In this document: positions 49,004 through 56,883 of the stretch, piece by piece
Position numbering within the stretch: position 1 is the stretch's first letter
Layout: the number at the start of each line of letters is the position of its first letter
Assembly: GCF_000979455.1 (NCBI RefSeq)
Contig: NZ_JJOY01000036.1
Location: forward strand, 1-56,883
Origin: Methanosarcina sp. 2.H.T.1A.6
Lineage (GTDB): Archaea; Halobacteriota; Methanosarcinia; Methanosarcinales; Methanosarcinaceae
DNA: 56,883 nucleotides
Direction of reading: 5' to 3'
Position numbers and translations under genes: made by a program
The notes under the pieces: model-generated
Databases searched by the model: none
Seen by the model: the letters and a program-made list of their open reading frames with translations, nothing else
What the model was told of the DNA's origin: nothing

Positions 49004-52000
49004 TTAGGACTCCTGCATAGACAAAATTTCATCCAATGAACTCAATCCATTTCTTACCAACTGGCTGTATGCGATAAAAGGTAGAGGCATGGCTCGAATA
49101 TAAGGAGCCGGAATTTCATTCGATACAATAAACAAAGAATCAACTAAAAATAATTCATTTTTTAATCCATAAGCTCTAATTAAAACATCAACATTAGCTT
49201 TAACCCATTCATGTCTCTTAATGTGTTTTTTAGTCCAGGAGTTATCTTCTTCATTATCCCCAATTAATCTTTCAATCTCATTTGCAATTTCTTGTGGATT
49301 TCTCCCGTAATTTAGGTCTTTACATTCAACTAATAATATCCTCTTACTCTTTTCGTCAATTACAAGCACATCAATATCTCCCAGATCAATCTCCGCATTT
49401 AACTTTTTCCCAGGTTTGATCGGAACCTCATGATCTACTTTGCAACTCGTATTATCTATGAACCATTGTTCTACCTTTTGTCTGAATCTCTTACCTTTCT
49501 CATTTATAATGGTTCCAATTAATGATTTCATTCCCTCAGGAGTATTCTCGTTGATGTGATATCGACCTGTCCTTACAAGTCCTATTAAATTAATACATGC
49601 TTCTTCTACATGACAAGGTCCCCAGAATACTAACGGATTCTCTTCGACTTTTGGTCCAATAACAAGAGGACGTCGTATATATGAAAGTCTTCGGTTATAT
49701 TTCCAAGGCCATATATCATTATATTCAAATCCTGCTGGTGGTTTTTCCCATTTTTTTCTTGGGAACTGAGAAAATAATTCTATTGCTTGCTCAATAGTTT
49801 CATCATCCCACATTAGGATCTCCTTCAGTTTTAATTTCATATCAGATAGATGGAGAGAAGGAGCTGCAACTTCCTGTTCAAATCCAATATCCATAAGAAA
49901 ATGGTAGAAATCTATTATTTGAGATAGGGATAATCCAAACTCTGCCTTAAAAGCCGCCTCATATATAGGATCAATATCAGTTTTTTCCTCTTGGTTTAAA
50001 ATGAAATTACTTTTGAAACTAGAGATTGAGTGCTCTAAGTGTTCTAAAATCTTGTTTTTCATGAAAGGATTGTAAACCTTATCAAATGCTTCTTTATCAA
50101 CACCTATCCGACCTGATTCAAGAATTGAAAGCTCATGGTCAATTATTTTGGTATGAATGTGATCGCTAATCATTGACCAGTTGATAAGACGGTCGGTGAT
50201 TGCAAGCAGCATATCAAAATCTGCTACACTTAGCTCCTTATTACCTTTTGGAGGTTCGGCAGAAACAATTTCTATGAGAGTCCTTAGAGACAATGCAGTA
50301 GAAGTAATTACTTGTGTTTCTTCTAGTTCCTCAGCTACTTTTAATGGAACTCCTGTAAAGCATTCAATAGTTGTAGCAGTAGTAAGATCTTTTAAAGCTT
50401 TATAATGTGAAAGCGCTTCATTATAAGTAATAAATCGCTTAATAAGAGATTCCCAAGAATACATATGAATGATTGATTTTAACCTTGCATAATAAATGTC
50501 AACGATTTTTTCGCATAGCTTTTCCTTTTCAATTTTAGATTCAATCACTTTACCCACAGGATATTTTTGCTTATCTAGTTCATTTACCAACTCATCCATC
50601 TGCTCTTGAACGTCATGTTTTTGAAGCTTACGAACCATAGGAACATAACGATCGTCTAAACGCACACTATAAGAAGTGTCTACCGTGAATATTTTTTTCT
50701 TGTTCCCAAACGGTGCATGAATATCAAGAAAACGCTTAATTTCTGCTATATCTAAAGTATTATGTAAATTTTTACTTTCCAACAATTTCCCAAATGTTTG
50801 CATTAATGATTCAAGCATTAACCGCTCACCAAGATTATCATGGCGTTGTAAAAAAGGTTCGATCTCTATTGGAATTGTAAATTTTATAGAAGAATCACTA
50901 ACCTTCCAATTAAAAGATAAGGAAGATGAATCTGTATTTATTTTAGATTTCTTTATATTTACCCATTTTTCAGGCTCTCCAAAAGAGAAAATTATAGTGA
51001 TAGGAGTGCGTCCTAAAGGTGAAAGATGCTCTTTAAGGCCTGGAGTTAATTGCCATAACCAATATGAAAATGTTTCAGTAAACTCTAAATTAGTTTTATT
51101 AAGTTTAGGGAAACATTTTGTAATTTCCAATGTAGGCCCAACCCATATTGGTTGCAGATAACCTTCTATCAGTTGATAAGAAAACCTTCCAAAAGAATAC
51201 TCAGGAACATAAATAGGAATATTTGATTCTAGATATCTTCTTACTACAACAATAAAGTTATCTGAGCTACTTGTCAAAGAGGCATGTTTGTCCCACATAT
51301 GTTTAACTTTTATTTTTAAATTCAGACCATAACCTGGGAGTAAATACAGATGAGTAGGTTTTTTCCTATCATCTAGGTAAAATGAATGATTATGTTCATA
51401 GTAAAGAGAAAATTTATCCAGGAAAGTTGAAAAGGGTGAAAAGTTATATTTTTTTTCTGCTCTTGCATACTTCCAAAGTGCCAAACTATCAAGATCACCA
51501 AGTTTACTAACAACTTCCAAATCTTCAATAGAGATAGGTAAAGTTTGATTCCCTTGTGAGTGAATAGCAATTTGGGCCGGTCTTCCAATTCTTCCAAAAA
51601 TCTTAATCACAAAAATATCATTATTTAAAAAATTATTTATCTTTTTTAAATATTGATTGATTAATTTATCACGAGAAAAGATATCTTGAGAGAGGACTGC
51701 AGGTTTCCATTCCTCATAAGGATCTTCTGCTGAATATCCATCGCCGTTGTCTACAGTTAATTGAACGTAAACAAGCTTATCAGAATCTATCCTAAAGACT
51801 TGCTCTTTGATTGGTAAATTATCTTTCAGAGAAGGTAAATCAATATTTAGAGGTTTGAAATGCATTAATCTGAAATATTCTTGAGCATTTTTCCACAAAA
51901 CATTTTTGTATTTTTCTGCAAGAACTTTAACTGCGTTGTATCTATAAGCTGCGACCCATATAAAATGGCGCAAACAAGAAACAATTGAACCTGGATGAGT

Positions 52001-52840
52001 TACAACTATCTTATCTTCGATCTCAACTAAAGGGCGTAAAATAAGAGGATTATTTGTTACTGAAGGATTGGCAAAGACATAATCTCCAGCTGGAATTTTA
52101 AAAGGAGTCAAAGATTCGTTTGTCAAGCCATGCTTAATAAGTAATTCATCTACTTCTTTTTTAGTAAACACCACAGAAGAAGTAAGTTTCTGGATTTGAC
52201 TTTCATCAGTTGATACAATATCAGTTCTCCATGTGTCGGGACTTGTCATATTTCGGAAGTGGCCTGCGCGTTTTGCAATCTCATTACTTAATATTAGTAG
52301 GGATAATGCACTCGGCCAAACAGCCAGAATAAAATCAATAGGAAAGTCACTTTCACTTAGGTGGATGGATTCTAAAAGAGCAGAGAGGATGTATGTTTCC
52401 TCAGTAACACCAGGATATATAACATAGTTTCCACCATAGACAACGATATTTTCAGTAAAAAGGCTTTCAGGAGGATCTTCTAAAATCCCAATATCTCCAT
52501 CTGTAGGTAGATATTTATTAAGAATATCTCTTAAATGAATTGGATCTATGGATAACTCACCTTCACTTTGTAGAGAGCACGCAATTTGTATGGCCATTTC
52601 TAAACGGATAGTGTGAGATTGGTTTTCAGGAAGGATCTGAAGACCAGAGAGCATTGGTATTAGCTCAGATGGACTATACTTTCTGAACTCTTCTTTTAAT
52701 AGATCAAGTTCAGGTAATGGTTTTTTTGAAGAAAGGTTCAGATTTTTAGACAAACAACAATGTTTATATTTCCTACCACTTCCACAAGGACAGGAATCGT
52801 TTCTTCCTATCTTTTTTAAATTTCTATTTCTTTTTGCCAT
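49004..52840 (-). CDS. large SEC-C protein with C-terminal PD-(D/E)XK-like nuclease domain
   Basis: 1278 residues from ATG 52840 (MAKRNRNLKKIGRNDSCP). The frame stays open to 52930, but those 30 residues look like non-coding AT-rich DNA; no strong ribosome site is seen for either start. GRNDSCPCGSGRKYKHCC (about 12-29) is a zinc-binding SEC-C motif. About 1100 residues without a recognised domain follow, mostly helical. Near residues 1135-1180, VDHEVPIKPGKKLNAEIDLGDIDVLVIDE then ILLVECKDL gives the E...D-x-D...E-C-K layout of a PD-(D/E)XK nuclease. SEC-C domains joined to nucleases occur in defence genes, so an anti-phage effector is plausible. It is a single-gene unit. Confidence 0.7.
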   Translation of the reverse strand: MAKRNRNLKKIGRNDSCPCGSGRKYKHCCLSKNLNLSSKKPLPELDLLKEEFRKYSPSELIPMLSGLQILPENQSHTIRLEMAIQIACSLQSEGELSIDPIHLRDILNKYLPTDGDIGILEDPPESLFTENIVVYGGNYVIYPGVTEETYILSALLESIHLSESDFPIDFILAVWPSALSLLILSNEIAKRAGHFRNMTSPDTWRTDIVSTDESQIQKLTSSVVFTKKEVDELLIKHGLTNESLTPFKIPAGDYVFANPSVTNNPLILRPLVEIEDKIVVTHPGSIVSCLRHFIWVAAYRYNAVKVLAEKYKNVLWKNAQEYFRLMHFKPLNIDLPSLKDNLPIKEQVFRIDSDKLVYVQLTVDNGDGYSAEDPYEEWKPAVLSQDIFSRDKLINQYLKKINNFLNNDIFVIKIFGRIGRPAQIAIHSQGNQTLPISIEDLEVVSKLGDLDSLALWKYARAEKKYNFSPFSTFLDKFSLYYEHNHSFYLDDRKKPTHLYLLPGYGLNLKIKVKHMWDKHASLTSSSDNFIVVVRRYLESNIPIYVPEYSFGRFSYQLIEGYLQPIWVGPTLEITKCFPKLNKTNLEFTETFSYWLWQLTPGLKEHLSPLGRTPITIIFSFGEPEKWVNIKKSKINTDSSSLSFNWKVSDSSIKFTIPIEIEPFLQRHDNLGERLMLESLMQTFGKLLESKNLHNTLDIAEIKRFLDIHAPFGNKKKIFTVDTSYSVRLDDRYVPMVRKLQKHDVQEQMDELVNELDKQKYPVGKVIESKIEKEKLCEKIVDIYYARLKSIIHMYSWESLIKRFITYNEALSHYKALKDLTTATTIECFTGVPLKVAEELEETQVITSTALSLRTLIEIVSAEPPKGNKELSVADFDMLLAITDRLINWSMISDHIHTKIIDHELSILESGRIGVDKEAFDKVYNPFMKNKILEHLEHSISSFKSNFILNQEEKTDIDPIYEAAFKAEFGLSLSQIIDFYHFLMDIGFEQEVAAPSLHLSDMKLKLKEILMWDDETIEQAIELFSQFPRKKWEKPPAGFEYNDIWPWKYNRRLSYIRRPLVIGPKVEENPLVFWGPCHVEEACINLIGLVRTGRYHINENTPEGMKSLIGTIINEKGKRFRQKVEQWFIDNTSCKVDHEVPIKPGKKLNAEIDLGDIDVLVIDEKSKRILLVECKDLNYGRNPQEIANEIERLIGDNEEDNSWTKKHIKRHEWVKANVDVLIRAYGLKNELFLVDSLFIVSNEIPAPYIRAMPLPFIAYSQLVRNGLSSLDEILSMQES

Positions 52841-52930
52841 ACCGATCACGTGAAAATATACTCCTGAAACTTCAAAACTTAAGATTAATTGGTTATATAT
52901 AAAGAATATATTGAAGTAAGAAGCTATCAA

Positions 52931-53237
52931 AGAAGAAGTTATCGAATTTTCCTTTTGTGTGTGATTAAAGCACAGTTTATTTTAACTTCACTATTTAGAT
53001 CCGACCTTCCGCAGATGTTTTCAAAAAAATAACATTTTTCTTGATATCGTTTTTGGAGAATTATTCAAAAATCTGCAGTTATTATCTCAACTGAAACTTC
53101 GGGAAATGGCTGCTGAAATCTTTGAATGAAGGCAAAAGGTCGAAAATTTTGGAGAATTTCAAAAATAGGTATTTGAGTAACTAGAGCGGTTTTCAGAAAA
53201 ACGATAGCAGGAAAAATTATGAAAAATGAACGGACAT
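52931..53237. other. short spacer before the intron
   Basis: About 300 bases with frequent stops on both strands; nothing recognisable. The minus-strand promoter of the SEC-C gene should lie in the left part. Confidence 0.5.
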
Positions 53238-53278
53238 GTCGGGTAAGTAGGGAGGATTACTCCTCCTTTCTCCCCTAG

Positions 53279-53312
53279 GAACCGTACTTGAAAGTTTCCC
53301 TTCATACGGCTC
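53279..53312 (-). ncRNA. group II intron domain V
   Basis: A 34-base hairpin starting GAGCCGTATG and ending AAGTACGGTTC on the minus strand. The length, the AGC-type/GAGCC-GGTTC closing stem and the internal bulge match the most conserved, catalytic domain of group II introns. Confidence 0.85.
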
Positions 53313-53343
53313 GAGTGTTTTCAAACCTTTTCTGTATCAGGCA

Positions 53344-53613
53344 TCAGTTATTTTGCATAACTGATTTTGTGATTCTGGATAACAGCTCACTGACATGACT
53401 GTCTGTAAGCCTCTCACCTATCGGTGTCTTTGAGTATCTTACATTCGTGAGTTTGTTTCCATTCACACAAGAAAACACCATCAGTAAGTCTGCATCCTTT
53501 CGGATCAAGGCAAAGTTTGAACCTCTATCCAATCCATTACAGATTGACATTCGCTTTTTACTGAATCCTCTACCCTCAATGCCTTCGTCATCCCTCGCGG
53601 GAGTCCTACCCAT
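53344..53613 (-). CDS. 89-codon frame inside the intron
   Basis: The frame is open, starting MGRTPARDDEGIEGRGFSKK, but it has no reverse transcriptase, maturase or HNH motif and lies where domain IV is expected. It may be the remnant of intron-encoded sequence or structural RNA that happens to be open. I would not treat it as an expressed gene. Confidence 0.25.
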   Translation of the reverse strand: MGRTPARDDEGIEGRGFSKKRMSICNGLDRGSNFALIRKDADLLMVFSCVNGNKLTNVRYSKTPIGERLTDSHVSELLSRITKSVMQNN

Positions 53614-54059
53614 TATGGGAGCATTTAGGGCTTACCAAGTTCTATACTACAAATAATGTGAATACCTTAGAAGCCATCTATAAACCGAGAATCATTTGTC
53701 CATTTGCCATAATGTCCGCAGACCCATTATAGCCCGATTCTGTACCTTTTGGTTAAGCGCGTCAACCTGCTTTCGCTTATTCCACTTCACGATTCTTACG
53801 ATGGTTCACTTTACGTTCTTCATAGTATTCTTATCCTAACCAATTATCAAAGTCAGGCTCCTTGATTTCTTGATATTGTCATGTGAGCTCCACACACAAA
53901 CGTTACCATTTATGCATGTCACAGTAGGATTACCTCAAATAGAAGAGGTAGCGTAATGGCGCGATTCATAGTATAGCTTCTTGTCGCACCTGCGGAAAGT
54001 GGGTTAGATGGTTTGCAGTGATTTTTCACTTAAATCATCAAATTATACTCTTAAAGTAA

Positions 54060-54082
54060 GAGTCTTTTTAATTTTTTCTGGT
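54060..54082. repeat. IS left terminal inverted repeat
   Basis: 23 bases that match 55627-55649 inverted without mismatch. Confidence 0.85.
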
Positions 54083-54270
54083 TCTTCTCCAATTTTAAAA
54101 AAACAATGGAATTTCACCCAAATCCCTTAACATTTTTCCTCATTTTGGAAAAATCGCTCCACTAATATCTAAATTTTGTACATCAATTTCTTATTTTTGC
54201 CATAATTATTCGATAGCTACCGCTGTAAAGCTGCAGATTAAAACTGAAAGTTTCCATTTACTCTTTACTT

Positions 54271-55626: not shown

Positions 55627-55649
55627 ACCAGAAAAAATTAAAAAGACTC
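55627..55649. repeat. IS right terminal inverted repeat
   Basis: The inverse of 54060-54082. The transposase start (55557) lies 70 bases inside it. Confidence 0.85.
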
Positions 55650-56368
55650 ATATATCGAAATTATTGAGCTCTTACTCTCGGCTTTTTAGAGCTATTTTTA
55701 GAGCACCTGAAAAATTACCTGCTGCCCTAGATATATGCAGCCATGAGCCTAATACAAAGCCTGTATTTACATTATAGACTTCAATCCAGAGAAACGAATA
55801 CTTCAGGTAAAAATATCAAAGATTCAAAACCTGTTTTCAAGAGTTCCACAGGCTACAAAGGAAACATACTCTTACAAAATCCTCTTAATTTGTCCTTTAA
55901 CCGGCTCTGTAGAAATCCTCTAAGTTCTATTTTTCCCAAAATAGATATAAAAATAAAATTGTAAAAATGCAGTAATTTACGAGAAAGATTATATTATGAA
56001 CTGGAAACCCCTGCATGGAAAGGACAGAAGAATTATACCTCCACCTCCACTGATTACTCTGGAAGTAAAGGAAGGATCTACCGAAGCAGAGATTTATAGA
56101 TCTAATAACTCTTTTTTCTTTGCTTCAAATTCTTCTTGAGTAATTATGCCATCATCATATTGAAATTCTAACAGCTTATGTTAGAAAAAACTCTCCTGCT
56201 AAAGGGGAATTAAAAGGAATTAGATAGCATATTACTATCTTTGATTTTCTTTTTATTCTATTGTATCATTAGAAAAGATTTTTTGCAACGGAACCCAAAT
56301 ATCTAGTGTACTTTTTTCCGGAATTATGTTCATTTTGAATTTTTTACAAGATATTTATAAGCATTTTA
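55650..56368. other. inter-IS spacer with gene debris
   Basis: The stretch between the first IS and the small membrane gene. A SHOCT fragment (56094-56180, minus) is the only recognisable coding trace. Plus-strand frames at 55743-55964 and 55996-56139 are low complexity or overlap that fragment and are not accepted. Confidence 0.5.
56094..56180 (-). pseudogene. SHOCT-domain C-terminal fragment
   Basis: The minus strand reads KLLEFQYDDGIITQEEFEAK then KKELLDL and a TAA. L-x-x-L...D-G-I-I-T-x-E-E-F-E-x-K-K is the SHOCT domain signature (short C-terminal domain of oligomerising membrane proteins). A TAA two codons upstream shows that the rest of the gene is gone. Confidence 0.7.
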
Positions 56369-56596: not shown

Positions 56597-56728
56597 TGTA
56601 TATACTTCCTGAATGACAATTATACTGTACTGCTATATAATATAAATGATATTTTGAAAATATATCGTTGTTTTCGCTTTAATTGTACATTAAATTCGAT
56701 AAAAAGATCAAATGTGGTCTAAAAATAT

Positions 56729-56883
56729 GAGTCTTTTTAATTTTTTCTGGTTCTTCTCCAATTTTAAAAAAACAATGGAATTTCACCCAAATCTCTTAAC
56801 ATTTTTCCTCATTTTGGAAAAATCGCTCCACTAATATCTAAATTTTGTACATCAATTTCTTATTTTTGCCATAATTATTCGAT
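56729..56883 (-). mobile_element. left end of a second IS copy (truncated by window)
   Basis: 155 bases identical to 54060-54214 apart from one change, in the same orientation. It runs off the window, so the rest of the copy must lie to the right. It begins exactly at the same terminal G as the first copy, so this is a true element end. Confidence 0.9.

What the first reader, a model, noticed from the sequence alone, without database searches (positions are those of the whole stretch)
53238..53989. Compact group II intron lacking its reverse transcriptase
The 5' GTGCGAC end, a 34-base domain V and a terminal domain VI hairpin are present, but only about 750 bases lie between the ends and no RT motif is found. 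Such a deleted intron can splice or move only with a helper protein from a full-length relative. Its open 89-codon frame may be a leftover. It lies 70 bases from the left end of the IS, a hint that mobile elements stack here.
Basis: partly seen in the sequence, partly recalled or inferred. Interest (0 to 1): 0.6.

Follow-up and report, generated by a model that had tools for sequence, protein, structure and literature searches.

The report
Mosaic protein-less group II intron
This is a real 752-base self-splicing-type intron that has lost its helper gene; it sits inside the end repeat of a tiny transposon in a Methanosarcina-type archaeon, and its target-finding half and catalytic half come from two different intron families, which suggests how such parasites can change targets.

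Summary
A complete ORF-less group II intron occupies exactly 53238-53989, on the minus strand (Rfam D1-D4 67.7 bits, D5/D6 63.5 bits; fold z = -4.7). The genome is Methanosarcina-like.

(1) The intron sits precisely 14 nt inside the terminal inverted repeat of a 251-bp MITE (53001-54003, 6-bp target duplication TTAGAT). Eight aligned copies of this MITE elsewhere in the genome are empty.
(2) EBS1 and EBS2 pair with that site, and they co-vary with the sites of related introns, the signature of RNA-guided retrohoming.
(3) The intron is a mosaic. Domain I (1-~345) belongs to IEP-encoding introns that target the same MITE repeats. From ~400 to the end it belongs to a separate ORF-less lineage with other targets. 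Trees of the two parts conflict at 100/100 and 99-100/97-100 support; no shuffle of 20,000 matches the split.
(4) No intact IEP was found in this genome, only a decayed fragment. The last ~40 codons of the 89-codon frame are a remnant of the IEP start.

ORF-less Methanosarcina introns, trans-mobilisation, and homing into IS inverted repeats are known. The domain-I swap in an apparently orphan intron is the new part. Splicing and mobility were not tested.

The parts
53238..53989 (-). Complete ORF-less group II intron, 752 nt
   Evidence: Rfam hits; boundaries from empty-site alignment and relatives
53642..53976 (-). Domain I (intron nt 14-348); 5' module shared at 92-97% in most windows with IEP-encoding introns that use the same target
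   Evidence: RNAalifold/MFE fold; sliding identity
53715..53721 (-). EBS1 CUGCGGA in a terminal loop of domain I
   Evidence: Pairs with IBS1 UCCGCAG; co-variation
53782..53787 (-). EBS2 AAGUGG
   Evidence: Pairs with IBS2 CCACUU; co-variation
53588..53645 (-). Crossover zone between the two modules (intron nt 345-402; best split near nt 369, at the D1/D2 border or in D2)
   Evidence: Site pattern and permutation
53572..53631 (-). Domain II (intron nt 359-418)
   Evidence: Fold
53315..53479 (-). Domain IV, ORF-deleted (approx. intron nt 511-675)
   Evidence: Fold; two deletions relative to IEP-bearing introns
53350..53466 (-). Remnant of the IEP N-terminus (residues 50-88 of the 89-codon ORF 53613-53344)
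   Evidence: BLASTP to the L163 IEP, E 2e-4; alignment
53279..53312 (-). Domain V, 34 nt, AGC triad, GAAA loop, bulge AA instead of the commoner AC
   Evidence: Rfam alignment; bulge counts
53241..53275 (-). Domain VI; candidate branch-point A at 53244
   Evidence: Rfam alignment, fold
53990..53996 (-). IBS1 TCCGCAG (5' exon)
   Evidence: Sequence
53997..54002 (-). IBS2 CCACTT (5' exon)
   Evidence: Sequence
53001..54003 (.). MITE (251 bp without the intron) with terminal inverted repeats; the intron occupies the right-hand repeat
   Evidence: Alignment with 8 empty copies in the same genome; ~14 copies
52995..53000 (+). Left 6-bp target-site duplication TTAGAT of the MITE
   Evidence: Sequence
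54004..54009 (+). Right 6-bp target-site duplication TTAGAT of the MITE
   Evidence: Sequence

Best explanation
It is a non-autonomous, site-specific group II intron. In a past host that supplied an IEP in trans, its excised RNA paired through EBS1/EBS2 with a motif in the terminal inverted repeat of an IS1634-like MITE, reverse-spliced into that DNA strand and was copied by the helper RT. The lineage arose by recombination: an ORF-less intron (source of domains II/III-VI, including the ORF-deleted domain IV) acquired the domain I of an IEP-encoding intron, and with it the MITE target. In the present genome it is probably an orphan, since only a decayed IEP fragment was found; it may still be a splicing-capable ribozyme. 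Shown by sequence: identity, boundaries, precise insertion into the MITE, EBS/IBS co-variation, mosaic structure. Inferred: retrohoming as the mechanism, the trans-acting helper, the direction of the recombination, and present inactivity.
For: Rfam and fold. Empty MITE copies and precise insertion with 6-bp TSD. The same target in IEP-bearing relatives, with TSDs at the MITE ends. EBS1/IBS1 co-variation: CUGCGG with CCGCAG, CUGCCG with CGGCAG; in other lineages GGCAUGA with TCATGCC and ACUGCCGC with GCGGCAGT. Related ORF-less copies at 90-92% in G076, G077 and G102. Mosaic: 1-400 is 84-86% to IEP-type vs 64-67% to the other ORF-less type, 401-752 is 60-62% vs 90-94%; split 78:1 then 8:74, 0 of 20,000 permutations, similar split in four members; tree conflict 100/100 vs 99/97 and 100/100. 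No intact IEP in the genome.
Against: No expression, splicing or mobility data. The genome is a 54-contig assembly, so a repeated IEP-bearing copy could be missing from it. The domain V bulge is AA rather than the commoner AC (AC 102, AA 10, AT 9 among hits of a domain V pattern scan), which might weaken catalysis. The two intron-bearing MITE copies in G076 could have moved by transposase rather than by homing.
Confidence: 0.83

Rival explanations
1. Simple deletion derivative: the ORF was lost from the same MITE-targeting IEP-bearing intron, and the 3' half merely evolved fast.
For: Domain I and the target are shared with IEP-bearing introns. Independent internal deletions do occur, e.g. L168.
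Against: The 3' half is 90-94% identical to a different ORF-less lineage whose 5' half is only 64-67% identical. The change is abrupt at nt 345-402, and trees of the two parts conflict with high support.
Confidence: 0.07
2. The reverse recombination: the MITE-targeting ORF-less clade is ancestral, and the IEP-bearing introns and/or the other ORF-less lineage are the recombinants.
For: Direction cannot be read from identity alone; divergences of the two halves are similar.
Against: It needs two separate events at the same point instead of one. The other ORF-less lineage groups with G005_L029 in the 5' tree (100/98), as expected of an unmixed line, though the 3' trees do not confirm that pairing.
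Confidence: 0.1
3. Copies spread mainly as cargo of the MITE (transposase-driven), not by retrohoming of the intron.
For: G076 has two MITE+intron copies, 99.4% identical over 1020 bp, with different TSDs (TTATAT, AAATAT).
Against: Intron-free MITEs of the same subfamily in G076 are already 95-98% alike, so homing explains it as well. EBS/IBS co-variation with different MITE subfamilies points to RNA-guided insertion. The TIR is split 14 nt from its end.
Confidence: 0.1
4. An inert relic: the ribozyme has decayed and the intron neither splices nor moves in any host.
For: No helper found in the genome; domain V bulge C to A; a second, truncated copy is present.
Against: Complete domains with intact AGC triad and branch site; perfect EBS/IBS pairing; the same AA bulge in several related copies.
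Confidence: 0.3

Closest known systems
ORF-less group II introns of Methanosarcina (Dai & Zimmerly 2003, cited through PMC4424553 and PMC8919778; paper not held)
   Same: Same genus or family of archaea, ORF-less, related IEP-bearing introns, nested mobile elements. G075 (5,751,492 bp, the size of M. acetivorans C2A from my own knowledge) carries 755-nt ORF-less introns that match the 3' half here.
   Different: Those are described as homing into group II intron ORFs; this one homes into a MITE inverted repeat, carries a different domain I, and was found without an intact IEP in its genome.
T. elongatus ORF-less introns TeI3 (PMC2882425)
   Same: ORF loss in domain IV with ORF remnants plus a second small deletion; diverged EBS/IBS families; mobilised in trans by driver IEPs; one family sits in an IS.
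   Different: All in one genome with many helpers; divergence into target families, with no domain-I replacement reported in the passages read.
RmInt1/RmInt2 of Sinorhizobium (PMC5894124)
   Same: Homing into insertion sequences; [quoted passage not shown]
   Different: Class D, bacterial, IEP-encoding.
C.te.I1 of Clostridium tetani (PMC4424553)
   Same: ORF-less intron in a genome without a related IEP.
   Different: Self-splicing and alternative splicing shown there; unrelated intron in a surface-layer protein gene.

Membership tests
Group II intron | Domain V (34 nt, AGC triad, GNRA loop) followed by domain VI with a bulged A | tested here: met
   RF00029, 63.5 bits
Group II intron | 5' GUGYG and 3' AY ends with a domain I-IV fold | tested here: met
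   GUGCGAC...GAC; RF02012 67.7 bits; fold
Group II intron | EBS/IBS pairing with flanking exons | tested here: met
   7-bp EBS1/IBS1 and 6-bp EBS2/IBS2, with co-variation
Group II intron | Self-splicing or IEP-aided splicing | not testable with these tools
   Needs RT-PCR or in vitro transcription
ORF-less (non-autonomous) group II intron | No IEP inside the intron | tested here: met
   Pfam 0 families; RVT_1 absent from the locus
ORF-less (non-autonomous) group II intron | Related IEP in the same genome that can act in trans | tested here: not met
   Only a decayed 178-residue match (63%) and a retron RT in the 54-contig assembly. Usual but not strictly defining (C.te.I1 lacks it), and an assembly gap is possible
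MITE (IS1634-like) | Short, no ORF, terminal inverted repeats, target-site duplication, multiple copies | tested here: met
   251 bp; TIR CCCACTTTCCGCAGATGTC; 5-6-bp TSD in 7 of 9 aligned copies; ~14 copies
MITE (IS1634-like) | Same TIRs as an autonomous IS1634 element | tested here: inconclusive
   An IS1634-family transposase (NF033559, 385 bits) in G076 is flanked by CCGACTTTCCGCAGATC. This genome holds only transposase fragments

The most novel reading that the evidence does not exclude
Replacement of domain I by recombination is a natural, recurrent route by which non-autonomous group II introns acquire new DNA targets: the target-recognition and catalytic/IEP-binding halves behave as exchangeable modules, letting ORF-less introns follow whichever repeat and helper are present.
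Probability: 0.35. Interest if true: 0.6.

Novelty: new variant of a known kind. Interest (0 to 1): 0.42.

Why it matters
How group II introns change targets and persist without their own protein bears on how self-splicing introns could become dispersed introns served by a common, trans-acting machinery, as in eukaryotes. Here the chimeric ORF-less intron, relatives of both parents, the target and its empty copies are all in hand, so exchange of the targeting domain can be tested directly.

Tried and rejected
One ancient ORF loss shared by all Methanosarcinaceae ORF-less introns: the same two segments of the IEP start are missing at nearly the same places in four genera, but a single clade is disfavoured (p-AU 0.019). 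I therefore keep only the 8-row Methanosarcina 3' module (100/100) as one lineage. Orthologous empty locus in another species: the flank is not conserved in 30 congeneric genomes. Helper in the own genome: the C54 RT is a retron St85-type RT and C35 is a decayed IEP. The primary papers on Methanosarcina ORF-less introns were not held. Structure prediction was not used, since there is no protein of interest.

Full report
What is there. The element at 53238-53989 reads on the minus strand and is a complete group II intron of 752 nt. It begins GUGCGAC and ends with a domain VI carrying a bulged A seven bases from the end. cmscan finds the domain I-IV signature and domains V/VI far above curated thresholds. 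The RNA folds 4.7 SD better than shuffles, and an alignment-based fold gives a closed domain I (nt 14-348) with EBS1 in a terminal loop. No RT lies within the intron.

Where it sits. Joined flanks match about 14 places in the same genome. Eight empty copies align end to end with the joined flanks. They define a 251-bp element with inverted repeats CCCACTTTCCGCAGATGTC / GACATCTGCGGAAGGTCGG; 7 of the 9 aligned copies have a 5-6-bp target-site duplication, in the window TTAGAT at 52995-53000 and 54004-54009. This is a MITE. A full IS with an IS1634-family transposase in G076 has a similar end, CCGACTTTCCGCAGATC; this genome keeps only fragments of such a transposase. The intron is inserted precisely 14 nt inside one end repeat, with no loss or gain of target sequence.

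How it found the site. EBS1 CUGCGGA and EBS2 AAGUGG pair with UCCGCAG and CCACUU. In relatives whose MITE repeat reads CGGCAG, EBS1 reads CUGCCG; where IBS2 reads TGACTT, EBS2 reads AAGUCA. More distant ORF-less introns at quite different sites also match theirs (GGCAUGA with TCATGCC; ACUGCCGC with GCGGCAGT). Some pairings are imperfect, for example EBS2 of L159 and L008. That pattern is the signature of insertion by RNA-DNA pairing. IEP-bearing relatives L163 and L159 sit in the same MITE repeats with intact TSDs.

Where the intron came from. In 54 of 112 Methanosarcinaceae genomes there is related sequence. The closest full copies (90-92%) are also ORF-less, about 750 nt, in G076, G077 and G102, with unrelated outer flanks at MITE-type sites. 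Comparison with IEP-bearing introns of the same target (L161-L163) and with an ORF-less lineage of other targets (L157, L158, L014, L015) shows a clean mosaic. Positions 1-345 follow the former (85-98% in windows), positions from about 400 follow the latter (85-98%). At sites that distinguish the two, the window intron reads 78:1 before the split and 8:74 after it; three other members give the same picture, and no permutation of 20,000 matches. Trees of the two parts conflict with strong support. The border is the domain I/II junction or domain II. The simplest reading is one recombination that gave an ORF-less intron a new targeting domain. Both parental types coexist today in, for example, G075 (L157/L158 and L164). 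Gene conversion between intron copies has been reported in Enterobacteriales (PMC3522654), but I found no report of a domain-I swap in the literature held.

The ORF. Residues 50-88 of the 89-codon frame align with residues 1-56 of the L163 IEP, with a 16-residue gap where these ORF-less introns lack the same segment. The rest of the frame overlaps domains II and III and has no protein match.

Helper. The genome holds two RT genes: a decayed group II IEP matching residues 174-351 only (C35), and a retron-type RT (C54). G076 likewise shows only a truncated IEP with a stop. A review states that bacterial ORF-less introns nearly always share a genome with a related IEP, with C.te.I1 as the exception (PMC4424553). 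If the assembly is complete at such repeats, this is another orphan. Mobility in trans of ORF-less introns is established for T. elongatus (PMC2882425).

Known and new. ORF-less Methanosarcina introns and homing into IS inverted repeats (RmInt2 in ISRm17, PMC5894124) are known. New here, as far as the held literature shows, are the mosaic origin with transfer of target specificity and the MITE repeat as a shared homing site for IEP-bearing and ORF-less archaeal introns. Present activity remains untested.

Noticed in passing
window 54049-54214, 55627-55653, 56718-56883: IS ends: a 26-nt inverted pair (54057 / 55652) around a transposase split in two frames (55557-55168 and 55164-54271; MULE, weak IS256 match), plus a 98% identical 166-nt direct repeat at the right edge of the window. 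Probably a broken IS and part of a second copy.
   Followed up: partly
L002 (G000:C51:233911-234091): A second, truncated copy: the 5' 181 nt of a related intron (82%), also behind a CCTACTTTCCCCAG target.
   Followed up: partly
L154 (G076:C2): Two MITE+intron units with different 6-bp TSDs, 99.4% identical over 1020 bp: either joint transposition or two homing events.
   Followed up: partly
L017, L018, L019 (G110, G111, G107): ORF-less introns of another genus inserted at GC-rich CCGCCTGCGGCAG-like palindromes, with EBS1 matching each site; the nature of these repeats is unknown.
   Followed up: no
L159, L164: IEP-bearing introns whose ORF is split near residue 251 by a second intron (twintron), the pattern described for M. 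acetivorans.
   Followed up: no
L005 (G000:C54): Retron St85-type reverse transcriptase with a C-terminal extension, 502 aa.
   Followed up: no
window 49004-52930: 1308-aa protein with a SEC-C motif and otherwise no Pfam match, next to the MITE.
   Followed up: no
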